Of a DNA stretch of 64,000 bases, positions 1,614-30,437 are shown piece by piece. The notes below the pieces were generated by a model. The model had not been told where the DNA came from and did not search any database. It saw only the letters and a program-made list of their open reading frames with translations. Both the position numbers and the translations under genes were made by a program. Origin of the DNA: Mugil cephalus (lineage: Eukaryota > Chordata > Actinopteri > Mugiliformes > Mugilidae); assembly GCF_022458985.1 (NCBI RefSeq), contig NC_061779.1, positions 10,490,501 to 10,554,500 of the forward strand. Direction: 5' to 3'. Every line of letters begins with the position of its first letter. The first letter of the stretch is position 1.

Positions 1614-3471
1614 AGGAAAGAAAAAAAAAAAACAAGGTCAACCCCAAAGCACAGTTGAACACATGTGCATGTACAAAATCCAACAGAAAACAAACAACTA
1701 TCTACCACACCGACCCTCAGCTAGAAACACACAACATGTGTCAACTTTATCTCCCCTTTTCTCATACTCATGTGCAGGCTCGCCTCGTCCAGGTGGCCTC
1801 ACTGTGACAGAAGGAGAAATACTGTTAAACTTGTGAAAAGCAAAGAGGCACAGCAGACCACATTCAAACTACATAGGGGAAGAAATACATTAATAATGAA
1901 AAATTAAGAATTGTAGCTATCGTACTGACTTTTATTGTTATTGCTGTCATTTTAATTAGTGTGTCATCTTTCAGCGTTTGTCGCTGATGCATCAGCAATT
2001 CAGGCGGTGGCTGCTGTGAATCACAATGACAAATGCACCGACACAAGTGAGTCATATTCGGCCGGAAACCAATTAGTAGTGCGTTTGCTGTGGGAATGTG
2101 AGTGTTCACTTGGCAGCTACTGCTTTAATTAATTAGATTTTAAAGCAACACGAGTGACTTACAAAGAGGCTGCATAGCAAAGCACAATTTATTTGGGCAT
2201 CTATTTATTGGTTTTGAAGATAATAGCTGCATGTTTTGTGTGTCCGTTGCTTTCGCCCTGCCCTTGTAGTTTTTATCTGCAGTTTATCTCTTTTTTTTTT
2301 TTTTTACAGCGTGAGCTGCGTTTTTCATCCATCTCTTCAAAGGCTTTCTCTCTGTCTCCTTCCTGAATGGCTTTTAATTAGACTGCATCATTTGATGTGA
2401 TTTCTCAGCAGGTATGGGGAGTATTTGCCCAAGATCATTCTTGTTTGTAATTATCCAGGGGATTAATCTGGTGTATTCACCGCAGGAGCCTGTTGCTGTT
2501 GCATTTGGATTCACCAGCCAAGTCATTAGATACACAGTCAGTGGGCACCGAACAACAGTTGGGTCTCTCCCCCTCTTGTCGGCTTAACAGGGGAGCAGGA
2601 TGAACACTGGCAGGCTCTGCGGCTTATATTTGGTTCATATGGACAAGTGTGACCTTAGACAGTTGCAGTTTTTGTTTCTTTTGTTCATTGTTTTTGACAA
2701 GTACACCTCCTCGCAGGCGTTGCAGGGGAACAAACAAAGGGACAAGTTAGTGGCTAAACACAAAAAAGTGCTGTTTTCCAAGCTTTTTTCCAAATCCATC
2801 AGTCGCGGCTGAGAGATCTGAAGTACACAATGCTTGATTCATTACATATCCAAGAACAAGCAAATGATGGATTGTAGCAAGATGTTCCAAGCTTATTTAT
2901 AGCTGATATTTAGATTTATGATAGCCAAGTAGCCGTGTGTTTCCGAGGCAAACGCCACACCTAGCCCCGTGGCAGACAGGGACAGAGCTGCAGATGTCTG
3001 CCTGACAAACAAGCAGTGACCCCCCGAGACCCTCATCTCTCCACGCCTGCTAATTGACTTGTTATTGATCAACTCAAAGACAGTCTGATTTATGGGAAAG
3101 AGGACTTGTGGAGACAGCCACCTGGCATGGAGCAGGCTGTTATGAATGTGAGGAGCAGACCCTGGGGGACTAGAGACTGCAGTTTAGGGAGGACATACAG
3201 GAGCTTGCAATGCACCACTGAACTGACACCTTGCACCACAAGGGGCTGTTTTTTTCCCTCCCTCTGCCATGATGCATCCAAACAACATCAGTGAGTAATG
3301 TGCGTGCGTATGAGCATGTAGCAGGTGTGGGCAGTGGGAGGGATGAGTGGGAATATGGCTGGGCCAGTACTTGTGTTTGGGAAAAGTGGAGAAAAGACAG
3401 GGGTGGTGAGGGCTGTGGGTCTGTGTTTGTGAGTCTGTGCGTGTGTTGTGCCAAGAACAAGAACCACCACC

Positions 3472-3922
3472 AATCAAGAATAACATTATGACCACCTTCC
3501 TAACATCGTGTAGGTTGTGACTCATCAGAGAATGGACACGGGCCTTTTGAGGGTGTCCTGTGGTGTCTGGTAACAGGATGTTGTTAGTGGGAGGGCCTTT
3601 GGTTGCCATGGGTTGAGGGGAGGGGCTTCTGTGGATCAGGCTTGGTCCAGTGCATCCCACCTAATTGATTAGTTTGGGATCTAGGGAATCTGGAGGCCAG
3701 GTAAAAACCTTTTCTCAACTTATGAGTTGTTCCTGAGCTTAAATCATCATTACTATGGGGTGGGGGTGCCTGTTTTGGTCTGGGTGGGTGGTATATGTCT
3801 AAGTAGCATCCACACGAATGCCAGGTCCAAACTTTTCCGAGCAGAACATTGAATTGTCACAAGATGGTCAGTGTTATTTACTCCTCCCGTCAGTGGTTTT
3901 TAGGGTTGTGGTTGATCGGTGC
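3472..3922 (+). mobile_element. Tc1/mariner-like deletion derivative, copy 1
   Basis: The left edge carries a decayed TAACATTATGACCACC terminus and the right edge ends in TTGATCGGTGCA. Both belong to a very common teleost Tc1-like family. Between them are antisense transposase fragments (around GTGTCCTGTGGTGTCTGG and CTGGAGGCCAGGT) with large internal deletions. No intact transposase remains. A second copy lies at 46488-46764 in the opposite orientation. Confidence 0.7.
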
Positions 3923-15529: not shown

Positions 15530-18258
15530 TCAAGGTGCTGACATCAACCTCCCCAGAGCCTCGTTGCTTTTGTGGCTAAGGGGGTGATAACTGTCGCTGA
15601 AAGACCGCGTGGCATCGGACGGAGAGCTAATCCGCCACGACTCCACGGCCTTCTCCAAGTCGGGTATGATGTCCGGCACGACGACTTGTTCGGCAATGAA
15701 GACCACTCCCTCCACGACCAGCAGCAGGACCCAGCCTACAGCCCCCAGCCAGTAGGAGGAGCCGAGGCTGGAGAAGTCCTGGCGGATTTCTTCGCGGTGC
15801 TGGTAGGTGAAAAAAGACCAGCTGAGCAGGAAGAAGAAGCCTGCGTGGACAGATGGGAAACACGAGTCAAGGAAAGTATCGTTGGCATTAAAAGAAGAAA
15901 AAAGTCATTAAGATCAATTATTACACGCCTGGAGCTTTACAAAAGCGTTTGTATGATAATGAACTGCAGTCTCAGAGAAATTGAGGGGGAAAAAAAGTGT
16001 CTTTAAAAAACTTCTCTCCTGCAGGGGTATGTAAATGAGCAGTAGATGAAAGAGATTCTGTAGATGCAGGTTTGACATGAACAACCCAAACCAAAGGCTA
16101 TTTGGAGGTAAATTGAAAATGGGTACGTTTTTCTTTTCTTTTTTTTTTTTTTTTTTGACTAATGCACTCGGAGACTCCCAAAACAAGAGCAGTGTAATTG
16201 TTAATAGAGTGAAACTGTTTGTGTTGCGTGTGGCGAAACAGCGCGTCTACCTGTGGAGGCCATGGTGAGCAGCAGCAGGGTGGTGGGGTAGAGCGCCTGG
16301 CCCGCCATCAGGAGGGAGCGAGTGTTGGAGTAGGAGAGCACCGTGCGAGACGTCCAGCAGAGGGCGAACACCAGACACAGGGAGGCAGTGCTGGCAGCCA
16401 TGATGAAGGAGAGGACTCCGAACACTCTCTCTGCTTCAACAGCTGGAGGACAAAAGACCAAAAATAAGTACGGCCGGCTCATGTGTATGTAAATATTCAC
16501 CTTCTCATCAGGTTTCCAGTAATAAGTAAGTAACTGAAACGCGAAGAGTAAGATCAAGAGTACATGTACATTTTATGAGTTATTCTGAAAGTGAGCAAGA
16601 AATGCCCCCCTGGGGTGAGTCGTGGGAGGATATTACCTCATTACTTTTTGTTAAAAGACACCCAGCAGCTTAATTCAGTTTAAGGCGCCTCGCCATCTTC
16701 TCTACTGAGCTGGCTAAAGTCACTTCACATTGCAGACCCTGGTTGTCCGGGATCCAAGCCCAGTCCAGCCTCAGTAGGTCGTAATGCTTTGGACATGTTT
16801 TGGACATATTTGAGGTATTCTCTCATATTTGTAAACAGACTACCGCTTCCATGAAACCATTTTTGTCATCCCACCCCCGCAAAAACTACGAGCAGGAACA
16901 TGCAGTCTAATGCTTTGGCATTTTTGTCCCTGATTGCCTGTGGACTCATCCTCTTTAGCTGGAAATTAAATGTATCCCCATTGTTCCTACAGTGGCTAAA
17001 ACAGATCATTTCCTTTCTACATTTGGAAAAACTCAGGGAGGTTGCTTTGACCCAGAGCCCTTTATGTAGAGTTTGTCCAAGATCTCCTCTTCCATTGAAT
17101 TGGAAATGGTATTAGTTTGCGTCGTCGTTGAAAACCTGAAAATAAGGTTTTCTTAATAATAATTAAAAAAAAAAAGACACCCAGCAGCTGTTTGTGACTG
17201 AGCTGGGTGTTCCTAAAATGGCAACGGCTATCACGACCCCATTTTACACCTGTGCCATTACACCTGTTTGTGATTTAGCTTTCAGTGTGTTTGTTTTCCT
17301 CTGTTGGTCCGTACACTACCTCTCTGATGTCTGATGTTACTAAATCAACACATGGGAAAAACCACCCTTCTCGTTAAATGAGTGTGACAATGTGATTCAT
17401 ATAAACAGGAATAAAAAGAGAAATCTGTCTGAAAAACAAAATTATTCGAACTTTATGGGCAACAGCGTAGTTTAGCTATTAGTTGAATGAATTACTATTA
17501 CTGTACCGGGCTCACAGCTACTATTTCTTTTGAAACTAGATTAACTGAACTAACTGGTTTGTTGGGTTTTTCCAGTTTATAATAAATATAATTTATGTTA
17601 TTTCTCTTGCCCTAATTTTCCACATGTAGAAACGATCTATTCTAAATTAGATTTATTTTGACAATCAAATAAAGAAAACTGCCGGGAGAGCTCCTCGCAA
17701 AGATAAGGTTTCAGCTATTTAGATTGCAAAACATTCGCCTCCAGGTAAATGCAATGGCAGGCTGAGCAGATACAAGGAATGCAGCTCACCAGAACAGGAG
17801 CGAGCTCAAACTTGTTTACTTTACTCCCGAGAACCTCTTCTGTGGCTCTGTGTTTTCTCGATACTGATCCCTTCTACGGATCGAGAGCGAACATATCCCC
17901 CGGATCAGACCAGTCCCTTATCAACACAGCTGTAAATACGTGTTCATGGTTCATCAACGGTTTTTACTCAGCGAAACCTTTAACCTAACCAAGAGCGGCA
18001 TCTTCAGACGGACGACGAAAGGAAGGTGTCAGAGAGGTGAATGGTTAATTAATTTTTTCCCTCACCGCTGAAGGTTATGTCGTCTTTGCGATACGTCTGG
18101 TCACTCCTAGTGTCGTTCCACTCGGCCCACAGTCCCTTCCCGTTCAGCCAGAACGGGGTCCAGACCGCGTAGCACACGCACAGGCAGCCCGCGAACCCCA
18201 AAGAGGACTGGGCGAACCTGAAGCGGCTGATGGAATCCTCGAGCTCGACAAACTTCAT
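15530..18258 (-). CDS. four-transmembrane, claudin/PMP22-like protein of unknown identity
   Basis: Three coding exons read from consensus sites: 18066-18258, 16251-16442 and 15530-15840 (minus). Phases match (193+192+311 nt), giving 231 residues and a TGA stop at 15532-15530. The start MKFVELEDSISR follows a pyrimidine-rich AG, so the ATG lies at the very start of its exon. Hydrophobic segments at about residues 18-38, 71-93, 107-134 and 157-180 give four membrane spans with cytosolic ends. The first outer loop has W-T-P-F-W, then GLW (residues 42-44) and an N-glycosylation site NDT. This resembles the claudin W...GLW signature but lacks its two cysteines. The C-terminal 50 residues are Ser-rich and polar. 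I recognise the fold type but not the gene; membrane-scaffold or junction-type roles are only possibilities. An L1-like insertion sits in intron 1. Confidence 0.78.
16671..17171 (+). mobile_element. 5'-truncated L1-like retrotransposon insertion with 18-bp target-site duplication
   Basis: The 18-mer AAAAGACACCCAGCAGCT occurs at 16653-16670 and again at 17172-17189. The roughly 500 bp between ends in an A-rich tail directly before the second copy, which is the signature of target-primed reverse transcription. Inside, a plus frame reads LQWLKQIISFLHLEKLRE, close to the C-terminal W-L...LEK block of fish L1 ORF2. It lies in intron 1 of the four-TM gene, antisense to it. Confidence 0.7.
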
Positions 18259-18413
18259 TTCTACGGAGGAAGAAAGGGGGTTAGGGTGAGCCGGTTAGGT
18301 GTTATTAGTGTGTACAGAAGTTCTGTCACAGAAGAAAAACCTGCCCTACGACTAAACTCATTTTTAAAACCATTTAAATCAGCTTTAAGGAGTTTATGGA
18401 AGTATCGTCTTAC

Positions 18414-19592: not shown

Positions 19593-22500
19593 TTATTTTC
19601 TGGCTCTCTGCAGCAAGGCCTTGAATACATCGAGAATTTCTGGATCCTCCCCAGCAGACAGATCTGGTGTGTTTTTCTCCAGCCAATCGGAGGAGTGGAT
19701 CTGATGCCTGAGAGTACCAATCAACGAGTCCAAACTCTCTGCGGGCTTAGAGGCCTGGCAGTCCAGCAACACAAACTCCTCGGCGGCCGCTGGGACCGTG
19801 TCAGGAACGGGGCTGTCCCTCTCCTCCGACCGGTCCGGTGACTTGCTCTGGGGCGATGATGTTGAATTGACAATCGCGGCATTGTCCGAATCTGCACTGT
19901 CCTCTTTCAGTGGCTCTTTGCTTTCCTCGCCGGCCTCCGTGGCGGGGCGTGAATCGGGGCTGCTCTCTGTTTCTTCCGTTTCTTTCAGAGCTTCCCTCAT
20001 GCGCTTGAGGCCTGAAATAACACAAGACATTAACAAAACAAGTCAGTGACTATTATCTGATTCAGGGGCGTCAACGTTTTTAAGGCCAAGGACCCCCAAA
20101 CTAAGTAGGGACCCCCTACCCACTAGTGCTGTTTATAAATATACATTATTACTATAATTTTGTTTTCAATATTAAGCTATTCAAATAACATTTTATTTTA
20201 TTTTATTTTATTTTATTTTATTCAAACATGTGCAACAATAGTTAGACCATGCAACTGTGACAAACAATTGGCTCAGGGCCAACTGTGGGGAACCTGACAG
20301 AGTCAGCATTTAATATGTGTCCTTGTGATTGGCTCAGCAGCGGTAGGGGGTGGGGCCTACAGGAAGCTTAGATTGACAGGTCTCAGCTAACCTACACATA
20401 GCTATGAATGAGTGGAGTGCTGACTGAAAGACAACATCTTCTGCCTCAGTTTATCCATTTAATAAAATATGTTGGATTAATGTTCATATGTAATTAACAT
20501 AAATTTAAAATTGTGGGGGAAAATTAAAAAAAAATAAATAAATAATAATAATATATATATATATATATACCTGGTTTAATATCGGGAAATGATCAGTGAT
20601 TGGATAAAAGAACATAGCTAAGGTATAATCAATTGCTGAGTTTCCACTACCCTTAGAAAGGCGCAAAACCTACATACTGAAATGAAAAGATGGTCACGGA
20701 AACACCTACATTTCGAAAAAACTCTCAAATATCACTAAAACACTTTTACGTTCTCATGAGGTGGTTTTTCAGACATATTGATATCGTTTTTTCCTCCAAC
20801 TGAAGTGTTGCGTGACGAGAAATTGAGAGAGTTACATGATATCGCAAGACGAGACTTTACAGGGGTCACAGCTCATTCTCAAAACACCTTTCAACAGATG
20901 CACGTACAAAGCGCAATTTCAGAAATATCGCTTTCATTTAGTGAAAAACTCTAATGGAAACGCAGTTAATGTTTTGTTGAAGGCAGAAAATCAGAATTAG
21001 AGCAACTACTTGAAACATTTAGGAAGAGTTGTCGACTATTCAGCATATTATTTAATGTGAAAAAGAAACAAATCCTACATTTCAAGATGTTCCCAAACGG
21101 GGTCTACATACATCTGGGCTACTTAGAGAAGGTGTAAAAACCCAGCCTGTGTATAGGTTATTTTACAGAAAGATTTGTGCCAATGAAACCTACACATATC
21201 TGAGATTTACAAATAAATGCATACAACAATAAAACCCAAAGCTAAAACTATAATTGGAGCTTTTACAGATTTGTTTTTCACACCTCTGTCAACTTGTCAA
21301 GATGATGGTGACATCTATGTTTGTCTCAGTCATTTAGAACATAATTTAATTTGATAGATGTGGGGAAAGTCCCAGTGACCTTTAGCCTTTCACAACTTAA
21401 CACAAGTCAGTTCATTCTTGAGTCAATGTGAACATCTGCACAACATCTGCCGCTCTTGAGGCATCGTGACATACTGCATTCACAGGAATGGACCGGACAG
21501 AATTACAGAAGTGTGGACAGGCAACCCAGAAACTTAATACCTCTGGCCATGTCGCTGCACAGTGGTGAAAAGAAATGGTCAAATAGATGTGGGAAAACCA
21601 AACAGGAACTCCATCAAAAGAGGAGACGTTAAAGAGGAGATATTAAAATGTCTGACCAGGCAGAGAAGACATTTTTTTTCTTTTATTGGAGCCATTTTAT
21701 TGGTCCATTTGAGGGACCAAGATGGGGGTGACATTAACTTCCTTAGGACGCAAACTTTACTTTCAGTGTCAGAACATTAACTTACAAGTGGAAGGCATAA
21801 AGAGAGATTTATACTCAGTTTAATCGCTTTAAATGGTTTGGCAGACTGTATTGGCAGATTTTAATACATGCTATAGTTTTCCGATGCCGTTTTGTGACGG
21901 CGATATGTGCCTCGGCTTTTTGTAAACTTTTATTTTCTAACATCAGAGTTGGCGGCACGGCAGCATTTAGAGGCTGACATTCACATTTTGTAAATCACCC
22001 CGATGAAGGCTCTGAGCTGGAACACGTGGGCGACATAAAGAAGATTCTTACTGTTACTCGACGTTGGTGGGGTTGTTTTTCACATTTGGCTGGTGGTGAT
22101 ATGACATGCGTCTTAGCATATACATAATTTCAAACAGAGGGCGGCCGAGCAGCAGCGTGGGCATGAGAGTTTAATGCGTGTAATGTCCTATAGACTCACC
22201 TAGCTGAAGGTGGTGCTGTTGGTCTGCAAAGACGATGCGGAACCACCCAGGTGTGGAGCAGGAGAACGCCTGGCCACAGCTCAACACCACCTTGTGTCTC
22301 AGGAAACGCCTCCACAGGGACAGCTCCTCCTCAAACGATGACTCTCTAAGATACTAATGAAACAACAATGACGTAGTAAGACTTTTGAGGCGAGACACTA
22401 CAGGTCAATAGGGTAAAACTTTTAACTAATAAATATCACCATGACACATCACCTTCAGTTGATCACTTACATTAACACAATATTTTTTTTGTATAACAAG

Positions 22501-25500
22501 TTTTCTGTGAATTTATATTTAAACATGTAAATGAGGAGTTATCTACTTAAATATGTGCTAATTTACATATATTTCCAGAACAGAAATCTGCATAATGGCT
22601 AAAGTGAGGTTTGAAATTCTTGTTTCATTTTGTTAACGTATTAGATTTACAGGTATCTGCAGAGGGCAGATCTCTTTTTATCACTTCATAAATCACAAAA
22701 TACTGTCAACAGTCCAAATCTTTTTTTTGTTTTGTTAAATAAATCCGGCTCTGAATGATATATGAAAAATCCCCTCTGTAAATACCTGCAGAATGTAGAT
22801 AAGAATACACCTGGAAAGGTTGGTATGTGTAAGTGCTACATGATTCTCATTTGCCATGTATAGTTTTACTGGAAAACACTGTGTGCGAAAACCAAATCTG
22901 CTCAAATCCTTCGAAAACATATCACGACTGGGTGCCAATACAAAGGATATGACCATATTTGGACCTGACAGACTTGTGCAGGAGATGAAGAGCTTCACAA
23001 CGGTACCTCATATGCAAGGTTAGAGACGAGGCTCACAGTGCTCAGAAAGCTATTATTTAGCAAATTAAGGAGTAGAGGTGCAACACAGACAAAATGTAGT
23101 GAAATTAACACATAAATGTGTATTTTTATAAAAAAAAAAAAAATCGCAAAATTTATCAGTGGGTGAAAAAATGGCAACGTCTTTGCCTTTTGCAGTGTCT
23201 GGCAAAAGACAAAGACGTGAGAAATGTGCACAATTTGTTTTCAAGTTTTAAATAAGAAAGCAGAGTACATGAGTTGCTGAGGTTTCTTCCTGTTAAAAGG
23301 GTTTCCCTGCCACCGTCGCCCTCAGGCTTACTCTGGAGGTTGCAGGCTGGTTTTTGTGAAGCGTCTTGAGACAATTTGTATTGTTATTGGCGCTATATAA
23401 ATAAAATTGAATTGAACTGAATGAGTGTGATGTGAGTTTATCTATGCACAAGTTGGAGTATAAACCTTTCTGAGGTCGGCCCAGACAAACAGCGCAGCAG
23501 GTTGGCCCAGGTAGGGGACGCCCATACTGAGCAGCTCTCCCGTCAGGAAGCCGTGAGAAGCTTTCAGTCTGCGTCGGTTCTCCGGCAGAAAGTCCTCATC
23601 GATCCACTCTGCAACGCGGGAGGCGACAACACAACAATTGCAGAATTAAACGTTAAACGTCTTTGTGCAGCTTGATGTGCAGCGGAACCACACGCTGTGC
23701 CTCTGTCGTATCAGAGGAAACGAAAAAAAAAGAAGAAGGGGGGACTGATATTTCTAGGAAGCAGACAAATCACCAGGAAGCAGATGTTTGAATGGCTGGA
23801 AAATGCTTTGCTCGAGTGTGAGATTCTCAGCTCAGTTTGACATTAATAGCGCAGTGTGTTTGCAAAAGCACACATTAGATCATACCTCTGTCTTGAAGCA
23901 GCTGCGCTACCTGGTGCTGAGTGGTCCCGGGGATACCGTGGAATGAGCCCAGCTGAGCCAAAGCCTCTATGAGGTCTTTGTTCTGAGTATACAGGGTGCC
24001 TATTCTGATCCCTGCCATTGCAAAGTCCTAGAAATGAGATGAGAGCAAACAAATGAAGCTATGAAAGCAAACACCTACCGAAGATTTTACTGTAGTCTGA
24101 GCACGGATATAAAGAGTCACGCTCTCGGATCTCAGCAGCGTACGTACCTTGCTCATCCCCCACATTACATGTGTCCTCTGCGGGTCGGGCAAACTGAAAT
24201 AAGGCCACATCATTAAGAGATAAGAGGGTGTCGTCAGCCACAACTGCAGTGATGAAGGGTCTAATAGAGTAATCATGCAGAGGTTAGGTTCACGCAGTAC
24301 CTGTCTGTACTGAGGACACTGTGAAAGGTGACAGATTCGTCAAACACTGTCAGCATGTACACTTCGTCCACGATGGCGTGGAGCTCATTTCTAAAGCAGG
24401 AAATGAGAATGAGAAAGGTAATGTCAATATTCTCACAGGTTTTATACGGTTACCGTGTGTTTACGGCAAAGGAAATGCGCCAAAAATGGAAAACGCTTCC
24501 TTCAAAGTCTCGTGTCAGTGGGAAAGCGCGGTGGTTTTATGGTTATAACGGCTCAGTGCCTGGAAGGGTTCTGTGAAGGGAATTACTCTGGCAAGATCAT
24601 TTAGAAAACAATAGATGATGCAGCAGACTCTTTGGCACATGGCTGCACTTGACAATATGTTGATGGTTAAGAAAGGTGATAAAACTCCATCAGGAGCGTT
24701 TGATATTCTGCACACGGGACAGAGCTGCTCGGCCGTAAAATAAAAGAGACACACAGTGGGAACTATATGCGCAGACTTGGCAAGGTGCTTAAAAAAACCA
24801 CAGGACTCTAGACTGGGAGGATTATAGTGCTAGTCTAGAGCGAAGGGATTACAGCGGGGCAAACATACCTTTTGGCAAACTCCAAGAAGGCAATCATGTC
24901 CTTCAGGGTGTAGATCTCAGCCAGGGGGTTGTGGGGGTTCATCAGGATAACAGCTCGAATTACCAGCCCCTTAAAGAAAGGTTGGAAGTAACTATAAATC
25001 GAGACGCTACACAGTCTGTCACGGACAAGCCGCAAAACAAATCTGTGAGAAAAATGGAGCGTATGTCGAACCTGAGAAAAATGCCTGAGCATTTGTGGAT
25101 TGATTATGTCTTTAAGTATTCATTACAGGTGGAGTAAACCATTGTAATCCAATACACTGTTGTCAAATCAATATACAGAGTCACAGGCTGTTCTGTGCGT
25201 GCGGTGAAAAATGCCGCGGTGGGTTTCCACAGCACCGGCTCTGAAAGTTGGCTCCAAGTGTCTTCGATCGAGCCATGCAAACACTATGCAAAATTAATTA
25301 GGTGGAGGAGGAGGAGTTGCGGCACTCCGGCACCGGGAGCAATTCTGGGTTCAGTGTCTTGCTCGATGACGTTTTGGCACGTTTGAGTTTGTGCTGCGAA
25401 TCAAACCAATAGTCCTGTGGTTCATGGACAATCCGCTCTACCTACTGAGCCACGACCAGCATGTTTCACTGAACCAACATACACCGGTCAGGCGTAACAC

Positions 25501-28500
25501 TGACAATCCTCTGACAATATTAGGAAGCTGGTCATAATGTTATGCTTGAACGGTGTACGCATTAACAGTACGAGAGTTGAGCAGAGGGGCAAACTGTCAA
25601 ATCCTAAATGCATATTAGATTTAAGGTTTCTAAACCCCTACCTAGCTAACATTATTTAGATTAGATTAGGATTTTCTCTTTTATTGGTGTATTTCTCAAT
25701 GCAAACATCCCTGAACATTGGGGGGTGACGCTTCTGTGAAAGCTCTGGAGGGAGGAGTTTGTGTGTTTGAGTTCAAATATCAGCCACGTTACTCAGAAAT
25801 ACTTCACTCCACCTTTAACATGCGCTTAAGAAAACATGCTTTTTAGAGTCACCTCCTGCTTAGCCCTCTTCAGACCTTCTTCTAGCTTCCCTACAGTGAG
25901 GTGGAAGGGTCGGCCATCTTTGCCATCATCCTGTCAATAAAAGAAATAAAAAAAAAGGAGAGGAAGCACGTCAGCGTCCACACTGGTCAGCTTTCAAGTT
26001 GAACGTTGAAAGACCAAATGTTTGCAGGTGAATCAGGTTCCGTGTTCCTACCTCACAATCCAGAGGCACGTGGAAGAGTTTCACATCACTATACAAATGC
26101 AGGTCTTCGGTGATAACGCCATAGAAGGGAGTCGGGATGAGGATGGCATCTACAACACAAACATGAAACACATCTAAACATGTGCAGCGTTCATCGGGAG
26201 ACTGATTTTAAATGACCCACATCAGATTTGCACGTTATTAGCGGCCATTTTCATAGCTAATTTACCAAAGACCAACATTTGCTAATCTAATTTGTCCAGG
26301 CAAATTAGAACAAATGCACGTCGCACCGTGGCTTAGTGATCCAATCCGGGCAGTAATATGTGAGTGTGTGCTGCTTTTCAGGCATATGATTTCCCTATTA
26401 AGTTCGTTATTGAGCAAAACAGACACACCACATTGCTTAAAACGAGTGCTGCAGTGGCACTAAGGAATACGCCTATGCCAAATAGCCTGTGTTTTGTTTA
26501 AAAGATCACACAGAACATTTCCCAGTGGGTGTTGTTACACGATGACCATACTGAAACAGAAAGAAACAACAAAACAACAGAAACTTGGGTGGATTTCCAG
26601 CTTCTGCTACTGCGCATTTGCATTCGTACGGACAGAGATGTGGGTGCGGTGTGAACCTACCTTTAGGGTCACAAATTACTGCGGCAATACACGAGAAGAG
26701 GGAGCCGCAACCATTCATCACCACGACCTGAACAAACACACGCATCCACCGTGTTATGAAAGACCCAATTAAGGCCCAGGAGGAGGCCTGATAAATGTGT
26801 CACAGACTCATTCACCTGCCTTGAACAGCCATTCATTACAGCTGCAAATTAAGTTGGTAACCGCAGAAAAGTATTAACTTCAATTTCAGCTTGTGGCGTC
26901 TTCATAACCCATTAGTGAGTGACTCAGATCCATTATTTGGATCCACTGCCTTCATTTCTGATAATGAAAGATGATAATCCATCTAAAGCAGCGGTATAAA
27001 ACCAATAAAAAAAAAAACAGGCTATTTGTCAGTATTTACATAATTTGCTGAACCTCGGTATCAGTCTCTGGGAAAAGAACTCTCTTTTATTTAAAGGCTG
27101 AAAATCTACGCCAAAGCACAAGTGTCAGAAAAAAAAAAAACTGCAGTTCCTTGTGTAGGCACATTCCAAAAATGTCCAAACGTCCAAAGAAGAAATAAAA
27201 ATGTTTACAGCCTAGTGGGCCGTGAGCAGATTCAAAAGGCCACAGCCATTAATCAAATGAATATTTTAACTAAAGGTCCAGAGTGTGGAGTCTTGGGGAC
27301 TCAATAGGTTAAAGTGGAACACAATATAACATAATTATGCTTCCATTAGTGCGTAATAGCACACATTTTTGCAGCCAGGTTCACTTTTATGTTTGGAAAG
27401 AGAGGGGCGAGGTGAGGTGTATTCAGCCGCTTTCAACAAACCACTTTAACACTTTAAAAAGTCTCTTAGAGTCAAACAAGCTTTTTGCTTTTCTGTCATT
27501 AATAATGCTGCTCAGTAGTTTAAACTCTTAGGAGTGTGTTATACTTAATTGCTTTTGCACAGTATGTCGTGCGTGTCAATTATTAATGGGTGTTCTAACT
27601 ATCTAAACGATCCGGGGTCAATATATGATTATTTTTCTTTCATTATTGTTAGAAGAATAAACACTGAGTAATGAGCTTTCGTCACGTGTAGAGCCGCGAG
27701 CGTGAGTAATTACATGCGGTAACATCTCATCTCTGCTATTTATATGTTTTCCCCAAACCCTCTGGGGTTGAATATACTGTGTTCAGATGACTGAAGCTGC
27801 CGTCTTACACACATCGCTCATTCCCACTCATTCTGCGCTCCAGCCATCAAAGCGAGACTCACGTTGTCAGCTTTCAGCGGTTTCGGGGAACAGCAGTACT
27901 GAGTCAGGAACTTGGCGACTTCCTCTCTTAGGCTGAAAGAAAGAACGATAAAAAGGTCGTCGGAGGGGTACGTGTGTGCTCTGAAGCTTTGAAACATGTG
28001 ATTGTCATTAAAAATGCAAATGAAGGTCCACTTAAATGTCTTACAAAGAGTGTCCCCTCCAGTCCGAATACTGCAACAAGGATGGATCAACATGCAGCAT
28101 GTCAGGCTTGGTCAACTGTAAGAAAAATATTGAATTATTAGTGGTGGATGCAGGCAGAAACATTTAGTTGTGTATTTTCCTTTTGTGTAACCGTAATATT
28201 TATCTTACACGTGTGTGAAGAAGGTCGTAGCATAGTTTGTTCTCACTTGTACCCATGTTGATTACACCCTAGAAGAAGAGAAGAGCGTTATAAATAATTA
28301 GTAGTCATTTTTTTATATGACGTCTGTACATTTCTAAAATGATGCCCACTCACATCAGGGTTGTCTGTGTCGTGGTGTCTGTCCATCCCATACTGGGCAT
28401 AGCCCTCCTGGAGGATGCCTTGATGCTGTCGTATGCTGTTACCACGGTTGGACAGGTACGCGCTACGGCCGGGAGCTCCCGCTCCTCTGAGAGTTGCCAA

Positions 28501-30416
28501 ACTGTTCTGAGAGACGTCGCAGGCCTCGACAGTTGCGGGCTGCTTAGCCTCCTGTGCCGTGGGAGCTTCTGAAAGGGGCTGAGACGAGGCGGAGGGGGCA
28601 GCTGTGGTCGTCGGCGAGGGCGACAGATGAGCCTGAGGTGAGACGGAGGGCTCGGCCTGCGTCGCGGTCGGAGCGCCCTGTCTGACAGCGAACAACGCCC
28701 CCGTGAGCATGCTGAACAGGCGCAGCTCGTGCTGGCGCTCCTGCTCCGCCCTCTTCTCCTCCCGCTGCTCCCTGCGCTCCTCGGCCTGCAGCTCCCTCTC
28801 CAGCCGCGCCTCCTCCAGCGAGAGGAGACGCTCCTCCGCCGACTGCTGCCAGCTCAGGAAGCCGGCCAGGGCCTTGTCCAGGCTCTCCTGGCCGACGCAC
28901 GATGCCTTGCCGCCGCGCCTGCGCTTCCTCATTCTCCCAGAGGTCAGGGGATGTGAACCCAGCTTCCTTGGCACGTCCTGTGCTGCGGGACTGCGGGCGG
29001 CCTGGGTGGCAGCTGTTGCCGAGCCAGCGATGTTCAAGTCGCTGAAACCTGCGAATACAAAGAAAAAAATAAAACTTTTAACCAGCGTAACCACTTTCAA
29101 GGTTCAAGGAGTTTGTGTCAATGGTTACACTGAGCAACTTAAATGTTCCTTTGCGAGTACCAAGAAAATAAACTTAATGTAACATACAGTAGGTAAACAG
29201 AACAAGAGAGTAGGAGCATAAGGTGCGGTTGACTGTGCAACACTGACACAAGAATGTGCAAATATTGGTTAGGTTGCAAATTGTCTTGTGTAACTACGCG
29301 CTGTGGTTAGCGGTGATGCCTCACAGCAAGGGGGTCTGGGTCACAATCCAAACGGGGCCTTTCTGTGTGGAGTTTGCGTCCCTGTGTCCGCGTGGGTTCC
29401 CTCCAGGTACTCCGGCTTCCTCCCACCACCCAAAGACACGCTCGTTAGGTTAATTGGTGGGTCTAAATTGGCCGTTGTGTGAGCGTGAATGGTTGTCTGT
29501 CTCTCTGTGTTGGCCCTGGGACAGACAGGCGACCTGTCCAGTGTGCGCACCCCGCCTCTAGAACAATGACAGCAGGGACAGGCTCCAGCAACCCTCTGGA
29601 GGACAAGTGGTTAAAGGAGATGAGGATGAGGACTATATGCTGCTGTTACACTGAATCCCCCCCCCCACTTTGGGACAAATTAAAGGCTTATCTCGTGTGT
29701 GCAGACGTGGCAGTGAGTGTTAAATGTTTCTGGTGTATTATGCTTCAGTGATAACTTTAAGATTTGGTCTGCCAACCTGAAGGGGAGATTAGTGCATGCG
29801 TAGAGCTCTCTGCCCGGTCCAGCGTGTCCTCCGGCTCCAGCAGAGACTGCCCATCCGTTTCATGGTCGTCTCCGGATCCATAATACATCTCGGGGGGCGC
29901 AACCCCGGGGTTCAGCATGCTCTCCTCAACATCTTCACATTTAATGTCCAGCAGATCTTCGGATTTCGGCGGAGGGCCAAAGACAAAACCACCCGCAGTC
30001 ACGGGGCCGAAGGCACCCGGCGTGGATCCCTGCTGGTACGAGTCAGGTGCGCCGGGGCTCTGAAACACCTGTTGAGCTACGACAGCTCCGCCGAGGGAGG
30101 AGTAGGTGATGGCCGGCCGGTTCGCCAGCACCCTGTCCATCACGTCGTAGAACTTCCAGGACCTCATCTTGTGGTTGTCCTTGATGCGGCGGTACTCCAG
30201 CTTCATCTTCTTGATCTTCTCCCTGCACTGGTCCCCCGTGCGGTAGATGCCCTTTTCGCGCAAAACGTGTGCTATGCGGTCAAACACGCGCTGGTTGCGC
30301 AACGAGCTCTCCAGCTCGATCTGGACCGACTTGTCGGACCACAGCTGGAGCAGCTCCACGATCTCCGGGTCCGTCCAGTTGCTGCCCCGCTCGTGCCTCC
30401 TGCCGCGAAAGTCCAT
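19593..30416 (-). CDS. accs: ACC synthase-like PLP protein with N-terminal trihelix DNA-binding domain (fusion form of ACCS)
   Basis: Coding exons, 5' to 3' on minus: 29777-30416, 28354-29048, 28209-28268, 28045-28115, 27863-27932, 26661-26727, 26052-26149, 25853-25930, 24869-24969, 24301-24390, 24148-24193, 23886-24027, 23466-23608, 22200-22353, 19593-20011. All junctions are GT-AG and in phase; the total is 2874 nt, 957 residues. Residues 12-100 are a trihelix Myb/SANT-like domain, 252-261 a basic patch, about 270-335 a coiled coil, 337-405 a Pro/Ser/Thr/Ala linker, about 409-820 the fold-type I aminotransferase domain, and 820-957 an acidic tail. PLP features are kept: TPFYG, NPHNP, DEVYM, the Schiff-base lysine in MSKDF (K672), IRIG and the carboxylate-binding Arg in GWFRIVF. 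Human ACCS is about 500 residues and is reported to lack ACC synthase activity, so the reaction here is unknown. Confidence 0.93.
20064..20140 (+). repeat. probable hAT-like miniature element fragment
   Basis: The words GGGGCGTCAACG, AAGGACCCCCAAACT and GGGACCCCCTACCC resemble an abundant teleost miniature transposon. The right end is not clear. It lies in the last accs intron. Confidence 0.35.
20190..20222 (+). repeat. TTTTA pentanucleotide microsatellite
   Basis: About six uninterrupted TTTTA units in the last accs intron. A separate AT dinucleotide run follows at about 20551-20569. Confidence 0.85.
20638..20968 (+). repeat. miniature inverted-repeat element, in-window family A, copy 1
   Basis: The left edge GAGTTTCCACTA is inverted at the right edge as TAATGGAAACGC. 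Inside are CTCAAATATCACTAAAACAC, GATATCGCAAGACGAGACTT and GAAATATCGCTTTCATT. These are shared with copies at 51729-51889 and 60127-60390. There is no coding capacity. It lies in the last accs intron. Confidence 0.6.
23278..23420 (+). repeat. dispersed teleost repeat ending GGCGCTATATAAATAAAA
   Basis: The block runs from TTTCTTCCTGTTAAAAGGG through GCCACCGTCGCC and GCGTCTTGAGACAATTTGT to GGCGCTATATAAATAAAATT. It is a very abundant spiny-rayed-fish repeat, here inside an accs intron. The 8540-8604 fragment is from the same family. Confidence 0.75.
25341..25455 (+). repeat. dispersed teleost repeat (AGTGTCTTGCTC ... CTACTGAGCCAC family)
   Basis: GGTTCAGTGTCTTGCTCGA, then CGAATCAAACC, then CGCTCTACCTACTGAGCCAC form the conserved words of a common fish interspersed repeat. 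It lies in an accs intron, directly beside the 74-bp element at 25482. Confidence 0.6.
25482..25555 (+). mobile_element. 74-bp miniature Tc1-like element (two terminal repeats only)
   Basis: CACCGGTCAGGCGTAACA at the left is matched in inverted form by TGTTATGCTTGAACGGTG at the right, flanked by TA on both sides. Only the ends of the Tc1-like family seen at 3472-3922 and 46488-46764 remain. Confidence 0.65.
28354..29048 (-). CDS. accs: accs exon 3: trihelix-family coiled coil joined to the start of the ACC-synthase homology
   Basis: A single 695-nt exon encodes residues 214-445. It holds RMRKRRRGGK (nuclear-localisation-like), then FLSWQQSAEERLLSLEEARL with a charged heptad stretch to about 335, which is typical of the C-terminal half of MSANTD-type proteins. 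After an Ala/Pro/Ser linker it runs into SAYLSNRGNSIRQHQG and EGYAQYGMD, the first conserved block of ACCS. No splice site separates the two parts, so the fusion does not depend on exon prediction. Donor GATGTGAGT at 28353. Confidence 0.9.
29298..29633 (+). repeat. SINE-like dispersed repeat with tRNA-like head
   Basis: The head CTGTGGTTAGCGGTGATGCC (A-box-like) is followed by GGTCTGGGTCACAATCC (B-box-like). The body has TTTCTGTGTGGAGTTTGCG, GTACTCCGGCTTCCTCCCAC, TTAATTGGTGGGTCTAAATT and GCGACCTGTCCAG. It is one of the most abundant fish repeats, here in the accs intron between the trihelix and coiled-coil exons. Confidence 0.75.
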
Positions 30417-30437
30417 CGCGAAGTTGCGGGACGTGTT
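29777..30437 (-). CDS. accs: accs exon 2: trihelix Myb/SANT-like DNA-binding domain
   Basis: The exon opens after a pyrimidine-AG acceptor (TGTGTTGCAG at 30438) with 21 nt of leader and ATG at 30416-30414. Residues 12-100 carry the spaced aromatic pattern of the MSANTD/ZSCAN29-type trihelix: NWTDPEIVELLQLW, NQRVFDRIAHVL, TGDQCREKIKKMKLEYRR, SWKFYDVMDRVL. Residues 104-213 are Pro/Gly/acidic linker. The donor (CCTTCAG, then GTTGGC) leaves phase 1, and the next exon starts in the matching phase, forming one Gly codon. This domain is nuclear and DNA-binding in its relatives. Confidence 0.88.

What the first reader, a model, noticed from the sequence alone, without database searches (positions are those of the whole stretch)
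28354..30416. Predicted DNA-binding-domain / PLP-enzyme fusion: trihelix plus coiled coil joined to ACC synthase-like protein
Seen: 15 exons join in phase to 957 codons with a trihelix Myb/SANT-like domain (residues 12-100), basic patch, coiled coil, and a complete fold-type I PLP domain. Known: mammalian ACCS is about 500 residues without a trihelix. Inference: a nuclear, possibly DNA- or chromatin-bound PLP enzyme, or an enzyme fold used as a metabolite sensor attached to a transcription factor, in the manner of bacterial MocR regulators.
Basis: partly seen in the sequence, partly recalled or inferred. Interest (0 to 1): 0.78.

Follow-up and report, generated by a model that had tools for sequence, protein, structure and literature searches.

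The report
Ancient trihelix–ACC synthase-like fusion protein
A fish gene named after a plant-hormone enzyme really encodes a DNA-binding-type domain joined to an enzyme-shaped domain, and the same joined protein turns up across jawed vertebrates, with the DNA-binding-type end the best-preserved part.

Summary
The window is from grey mullet (Mugil cephalus). The 15-exon, 957-codon model rebuilds exactly and is an exact suffix of the 965-residue NCBI protein, which adds an upstream start exon. It encodes a Myb/SANT-like (trihelix) domain, a 70-residue helix, a complete ACC synthase-like fold-type I PLP domain and a conserved helical tail. It is not mis-joined genes: among long homologues known only from short contigs, 18 of 19 carry both domains in one intron-free ORF. 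Nor is it a teleost oddity: sharks, a ray, chimaera, coelacanth, lungfish, amphibians, reptiles, birds, monotremes, marsupials, gar and bowfin have it. The short placental enzyme is best read as derived (negative searches plus recall). The trihelix is the most constrained part (88% mean pairwise identity over 36 species, against 66% for the PLP domain). In a stingray and one unnamed ray-like cluster, two nearly invariant PLP-domain arginines are gone while the trihelix is 99–100% shark-like. Most likely it is a dimeric nuclear DNA-binding protein whose PLP fold is a ligand sensor or platform; DNA binding, ligand and location are untested. Databases hold it under an enzyme name; ten open-library paper searches listed no description of the fusion.

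The parts
29777..30437 (-).
30132..30383 (-). Trihelix (Myb/SANT-like, PF13837) domain, residues 12-95
   Evidence: AlphaFold helices at 16-26, 29-37, 42-54, 61-80, 90-98
29934..29945 (-). Ile-Lys-Cys-Glu motif (residues 158-161) in the disordered linker; fits the SUMO-acceptor consensus (recalled; inference)
   Evidence: IK[CS]E within the first 330 residues of 179 of 220 homologues; position checked
28354..29048 (-). Second exon: basic patch, coiled-coil helix, linker and conserved N-terminus of the ACCS enzyme part in one frame
28906..28935 (-). Basic patch RMRKRRRGGK, resembles a nuclear-localisation signal
   Evidence: a loose basic-cluster pattern matched in 202 of 220 homologues
28681..28890 (-). 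Long helix, predicted coiled coil, residues 267-336
   Evidence: AlphaFold model, mostly pLDDT 83-86; position checked
28354..28476 (-). Start of the ACCS enzyme part (YLSNRGN...NPD), same exon as the coiled coil
   Evidence: alignment from sharks to teleosts
22200..28268 (-). [quoted passage not shown]
24148..24150 (-). Codon of Lys672, the expected Schiff-base lysine
   Evidence: K in 218 of 218 aligned homologues, 2 more gapped
22237..22239 (-). Codon of Arg806, expected (recalled role) to bind the substrate carboxylate
   Evidence: R in 205 of 211 aligned rows; the 6 S are 2 ray-type clusters and 4 aberrantly spliced rows
19593..20011 (-). Last exon: end of PLP domain, disordered stretch, conserved helical C-terminal tail (19733-19596) and stop

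Best explanation
[quoted passage not shown] the fusion predates the split of cartilaginous and bony vertebrates. INFERRED: the protein works as a nuclear, sequence-specific DNA-binding dimer. The basic patch takes it into the nucleus, the long helix and the PLP domain (fold-type I enzymes are normally dimers, recalled) pair two trihelix domains, and the PLP fold acts as a ligand- or cofactor-responsive module or a rigid platform that sets DNA binding or partner recruitment. In outline this is like the unrelated bacterial MocR regulators. In placental mammals the DNA-binding half was lost.
Confidence: 0.5

Rival explanations
1. Chromatin-tethered active enzyme: the trihelix puts a working PLP lyase or aminotransferase at genomic sites, where its product or ammonia acts locally.
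For: Lys672 in 218 of 218, Asn607 in 220 of 220 and Arg806 in 205 of 211 aligned rows; PLP domain under clear constraint; a table of a horse study lists ACCS as deaminating L-vinylglycine (passages of PMC12363045).
Against: Two ray-type clusters lost two nearly invariant arginines and kept the protein; the trihelix is much more conserved than the catalytic domain.
Confidence: 0.25
2. The PLP domain is only a dimerisation or partner-binding scaffold (pseudoenzyme) with no ligand role; the C-terminal tail recruits partners. (This 0.2 is also counted inside the best explanation's 0.5, as its platform version.)
For: Ray-type substitutions; conserved C-terminal tail (DWL pattern in the last 70 residues of 200 of 220 rows); Tyr of the plant DYHG motif is Trp in 203 of 214 aligned rows.
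Against: Near-invariant catalytic lysine and other pocket residues outside the ray-type rows (one further exception is D635N in P0088).
Confidence: 0.2
3. Two neighbouring genes wrongly joined by prediction.
For: A predicted isoform (P0119) and one contig ORF (P0118) start after the trihelix.
Against: The coiled coil and ACCS N-terminus share one exon and frame; intron-free fused ORFs on short contigs; same order of domains across jawed vertebrates.
Confidence: 0.02

Closest known systems
[quoted passage not shown] recalled as 501 aa, not fetched)
   Same: Same name and, by recall, the same PLP domain and the same exon boundary before GIINLG
   Different: By recall the placental form lacks the trihelix, coiled coil and C-terminal tail; no placental protein with the trihelix appears by name in the lists
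Plant ACC synthase (tomato 1iax, apple 1ynu)
   Same: Closest solved structures by sequence (E 6e-63) and by fold (E 9e-33)
   Different: No DNA-binding domain; Trp484 replaces the Tyr of the plant DYHG motif (alignment), so ACC formation is unlikely (inference; recalled reports say human ACCS lacks it)
Bacterial MocR/GabR regulators
   Same: DNA-binding domain N-terminal to a fold-type I PLP domain (PMC6677901, start of abstract in the listing)
   Different: MocR uses a GntR-family winged helix; Pfam found only PF13837 and PF00155 here. Analogous architecture, not a family member
Trihelix (GT) factors and vertebrate Myb/SANT-like genes
   Same: PF13837 domain and a trihelix-like model
   Different: None carrying an enzyme domain was met here apart from this gene; the 7 other mullet loci fetched, of 107 other PF13837 matches, are at most 39% identical

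Membership tests
ACCS family (ACC synthase-like, class I/II aminotransferase fold) | PF00155 domain most similar to ACC synthase | tested here: met
ACCS family (ACC synthase-like, class I/II aminotransferase fold) | Schiff-base lysine and substrate-carboxylate arginine (roles recalled) | tested here: met
   K672 and R806 present in Mugil; 218 of 218 and 205 of 211 aligned rows
Catalytically competent ACC synthase | Tyr of the DYHG motif (importance recalled) | tested here: not met
   Trp484 in Mugil and in 203 of 214 aligned rows
Catalytically competent ACC synthase | Converts S-adenosylmethionine to ACC | not testable with these tools
   needs an assay
Trihelix / Myb-SANT-like DNA-binding proteins (PF13837) | Domain over the curated cut-off | tested here: met
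   66.9 bits against 27
Trihelix / Myb-SANT-like DNA-binding proteins (PF13837) | Trihelix fold as in GT-1 | tested here: inconclusive
Trihelix / Myb-SANT-like DNA-binding proteins (PF13837) | Sequence-specific DNA binding | not testable with these tools
   needs SELEX, EMSA or ChIP
MocR regulators | GntR winged-helix domain N-terminal to a fold-type I domain | tested here: not met
   Pfam scan at E up to 0.1 shows only PF13837 and PF00155
MocR regulators | PLP or amino-acid ligand changes DNA binding | not testable with these tools
   no assay

The most novel reading that the evidence does not exclude
ACCS is a vertebrate metabolite-responsive transcription regulator, an animal counterpart of MocR: the trihelix reads DNA and the PLP fold reads an amino-acid-like ligand. 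It existed in the jawed-vertebrate ancestor, became a ligand-blind form in rays, and was cut down to a stand-alone enzyme-like remnant in placental mammals, which would explain why human ACCS has no settled function.
Probability: 0.3. Interest if true: 0.9.

Novelty: new variant of a known kind. Interest (0 to 1): 0.62.

Why it matters
In the two papers whose passages I read, ACCS is treated as a metabolic enzyme: a horse transcriptome study explains its expression by ammonia from vinylglycine (PMC12363045), and a human IgA-nephropathy association study names it as a locus and describes an aminotransferase-family protein (PMC4458882). If the ancestral protein is a DNA-binding regulator whose best-kept part is missing from the placental form, the gene has been looked at in the lineage that lost its defining domain. 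Species whose fused protein is listed here (Xenopus P0312, medaka P0064, birds, sharks) would be the right systems, and a metabolite-sensing PLP-fold transcription factor in animals becomes directly testable.

Tried and rejected
Rejected: mis-joined neighbours (intron-free fused ORFs; shared exon and frame; same order across jawed vertebrates). Rejected: recent capture of a mobile-element Myb-like domain in mullet. The genome has 108 PF13837 matches at E up to 0.001, the window's included (a lower bound); of the other 107, 7 loci were fetched and are at most 39% identical, and the trihelix is 98-100% identical among five cartilaginous-fish proteins. An older transposon origin was not tested; papers on domesticated Harbinger Myb-like proteins were seen only in the listing.

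Rejected as evidence: R806S in P0268, P0272, P0304 and P0323, which are frame-shifted or exon-skipped rows; they stay in the counts. One search defined conserved columns on the 185 of 214 non-cartilaginous rows with at least 97% PLP coverage; the 13 named bony vertebrates shown there were drawn from those 214 rows, so their low counts (0-2) are partly by construction and only the three sharks and the chimaera are a fair control. The 202 of 220 uses a loose pattern in a window before the first EER; several misses are a misplaced window. The PLP tree follows vertebrate phylogeny broadly, but its rooting split the cartilaginous fishes, so no rate test is claimed.

Led nowhere: searches of the mullet genome for a trihelix-free ACCS copy and for close trihelix relatives (machine did not complete), so copy number is unknown. 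Pfam gave nothing for 129 aa of the downstream gene. Absence from print rests on searches in an open-licence library; 59 was about MocR and 18 about Harbinger, and the listings of 17 (15 of 109), (12 of 17; 20 of 29,129) were capped. Recalled work on human ACCS lacking ACC synthase activity was not seen.

Full report
WHAT IS THERE. On the minus strand of the window, 15 exons between 30416 and 19593 join in phase to 957 codons; all 14 introns begin GT and end AG. [quoted passage not shown] The eight extra residues fit an exon ending in ATG at 30592-30590, spliced to 30437. Pfam finds Myb_DNA-bind_4 (residues 12-95, 2.2e-18) and Aminotran_1_2 (453-811, 2.4e-58) and nothing else at E up to 0.1.

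ONE PROTEIN, NOT TWO GENES. The exon 29048-28354 holds the basic patch, the coiled coil and the conserved start of the enzyme part (YLSNRGN...NPD) in one open frame. The remaining question was whether the trihelix exon is spliced to it. Among the 120 proteins listed, 16 come only from the source labelled 'lgn', on contigs of 3,127-4,036 bases; 15 of the 16 carry both Pfam domains in a single ORF of 904-987 aa, and the other (P0118, 743 aa) lacks the trihelix. One search lists three more lgn-only rows, all with both domains (852-921 aa, contigs 2,829-3,666). The Mugil coding span is 10.8 kb with 14 introns, so such contigs are spliced RNA or, much less likely in 18 separate clusters, intron-less copies. 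P0152 (461 aa) also reads through trihelix, coiled coil and the first enzyme exons. Both searches admit only proteins of a suitable length, which favours long ORFs, limited to 184-584 aa, shows many contig ORFs with one exon alone, as genomic contigs would. Against the single form, one isoform without the trihelix is predicted in Echeneis (P0119), and one in Polymixia starts inside the domain (P0089).

HOW WIDESPREAD. A search with the N-terminal part of P0156 (a contig protein close to the Callorhinchus one), region 1-360, found 286 proteins; all 120 listed rows carry both PF13837 and PF00155. PF13837 is expected from the query; PF00155 is not. Named species include Hemitrygon, Heptranchias, Chiloscyllium, Stegostoma, Callorhinchus, Latimeria, Protopterus, Pleurodeles, Ambystoma, Xenopus, caecilians, turtles, crocodilians, birds, lizards, snakes, Tachyglossus, Ornithorhynchus, Sarcophilus, Dromiciops, Amia, Polyodon, Lepisosteus and many teleosts. 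Pfam was rerun on five of these (shark, bird, marsupial, echidna, coelacanth) with both domains over cut-off in five of five. Of the 220 distinct proteins listed hold the trihelix core motif. The fusion is therefore older than the split between cartilaginous and bony vertebrates. No placental name appears in the lists; with the recalled human length of 501 aa this points to loss in placentals, but unnamed rows and possible withholding of human-like entries make this an inference.

WHICH PART IS CONSTRAINED. Over 36 species picked by hand from the listed rows, the mean pairwise identity is 88% for the trihelix (43 of 84 columns invariant), 59% for the coiled coil, 66% for the PLP domain (67 of 387), 52% for the C-terminal 60 residues and 19-45% for the linkers, where many pairs were left out for lack of overlap. 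In the 119 homologues compared with the window protein, the means are 95%, 87% and 83% for trihelix, coiled coil and PLP domain. Among eight proteins (five cartilaginous fishes, coelacanth, turtle, bowfin) the trihelix is 95-100% identical. The mullet trihelix is less like them, about 82% identical to the shark-type domain with a short deletion seen also in four other teleosts. A domain this static, followed by a basic cluster (loose pattern, 202 of 220 rows; both marsupials among the misses) and an Ile-Lys-Cys/Ser-Glu motif (179 of 220), is what a DNA-binding regulator would show; that reading is inference.

THE ENZYME HALF. The closest solved structures are plant ACC synthases (tomato 1iax, E 6e-63; apple 1ynu, fold E 9e-33). 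Lys672 is kept in 218 of 218 aligned rows, Asn607 in 220 of 220, Asp635 in 213 of 214 (N in P0088), Tyr638 in 213 of 214 and Arg680 in 215 of 217. Arg806 is kept in 205 of 211; four of the six exceptions are aberrantly spliced rows and two are the ray-type clusters. The Tyr of the plant DYHG motif is Trp484 here and in 203 of 214 rows, so plant-type ACC synthesis is unlikely (roles of these residues are recalled).

A NATURAL TEST IN RAYS. P0242 (Hemitrygon, a stingray) and P0241 (unnamed contig source; taken as a ray because it shares the unusual substitutions) both carry R680H and R806S. Of 75 PLP columns at least 99% conserved in 185 non-cartilaginous rows, 7 and 6 are changed in these two, against 1, 1, 1 and 2 in three sharks and the chimaera, the fair control. 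One change in each (F543Y) is shared with the sharks, and one in Hemitrygon (G682S) with the chimaera. Thirteen bony vertebrates show 0-2, but they come from the set that defined the columns. Of 44 such trihelix columns none is changed in the two ray-type rows. Both proteins stay full length (902 aa) and their trihelix is 99-100% identical to the shark's. The simplest reading is that the protein is kept for something other than ordinary amino-acid catalysis, at least there. This is two clusters, and the lysine is retained.

MECHANISM. I commit to a nuclear DNA-binding dimer with the PLP fold as ligand-responsive module or platform (0.5 in total: about 0.3 for ligand sensing as in the novel case, 0.2 for a platform without a ligand, which is also listed as a rival). 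Active enzyme tethered to chromatin is the main other rival (0.25). The MocR likeness is functional analogy: MocR is a GntR-family winged-helix regulator (start of abstract of PMC6677901 in the listing), and no such domain is found here.

KNOWN OR NEW. The fused proteins sit in NCBI and UniRef under an enzyme name, so their existence is recorded. The ten paper searches (open-licence library, some listings capped) listed no paper whose title or shown abstract describes the fusion. Only passages of two papers were read; both treat ACCS as an enzyme or an association locus.

Noticed in passing
P0241 and P0242: A stingray ACCS protein and an unnamed ray-like one lost two nearly invariant PLP-domain arginines (R680H, R806S) but keep full length and an unchanged trihelix.
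   Followed up: partly
window 19596-19733: A helical C-terminal tail (LIG.L...SDWL.KNT...) conserved from sharks to teleosts, outside the two Pfam domains found; the finding does not mention it.
   Followed up: partly
P0118, P0119, P0089: One contig ORF and two predicted isoforms start after or inside the trihelix, so a trihelix-free form may be made in some teleosts.
   Followed up: no
G000:C22:9515376-9747047: Two groups, 13 PF13837 (Myb/SANT-like) matches in all, in the mullet genome: apparently arrays of trihelix domains or genes.
   Followed up: no
window about 15533-18261, minus strand: Downstream gene with hydrophobic, membrane-protein-like exons; 129 joined residues gave no Pfam match at E up to 0.01.
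   Followed up: partly
window 29934-29945: Ile-Lys-Cys-Glu motif in the disordered linker, fitting a SUMO-acceptor consensus (recalled), kept as IK[CS]E in 179 of 220 homologues.
   Followed up: partly
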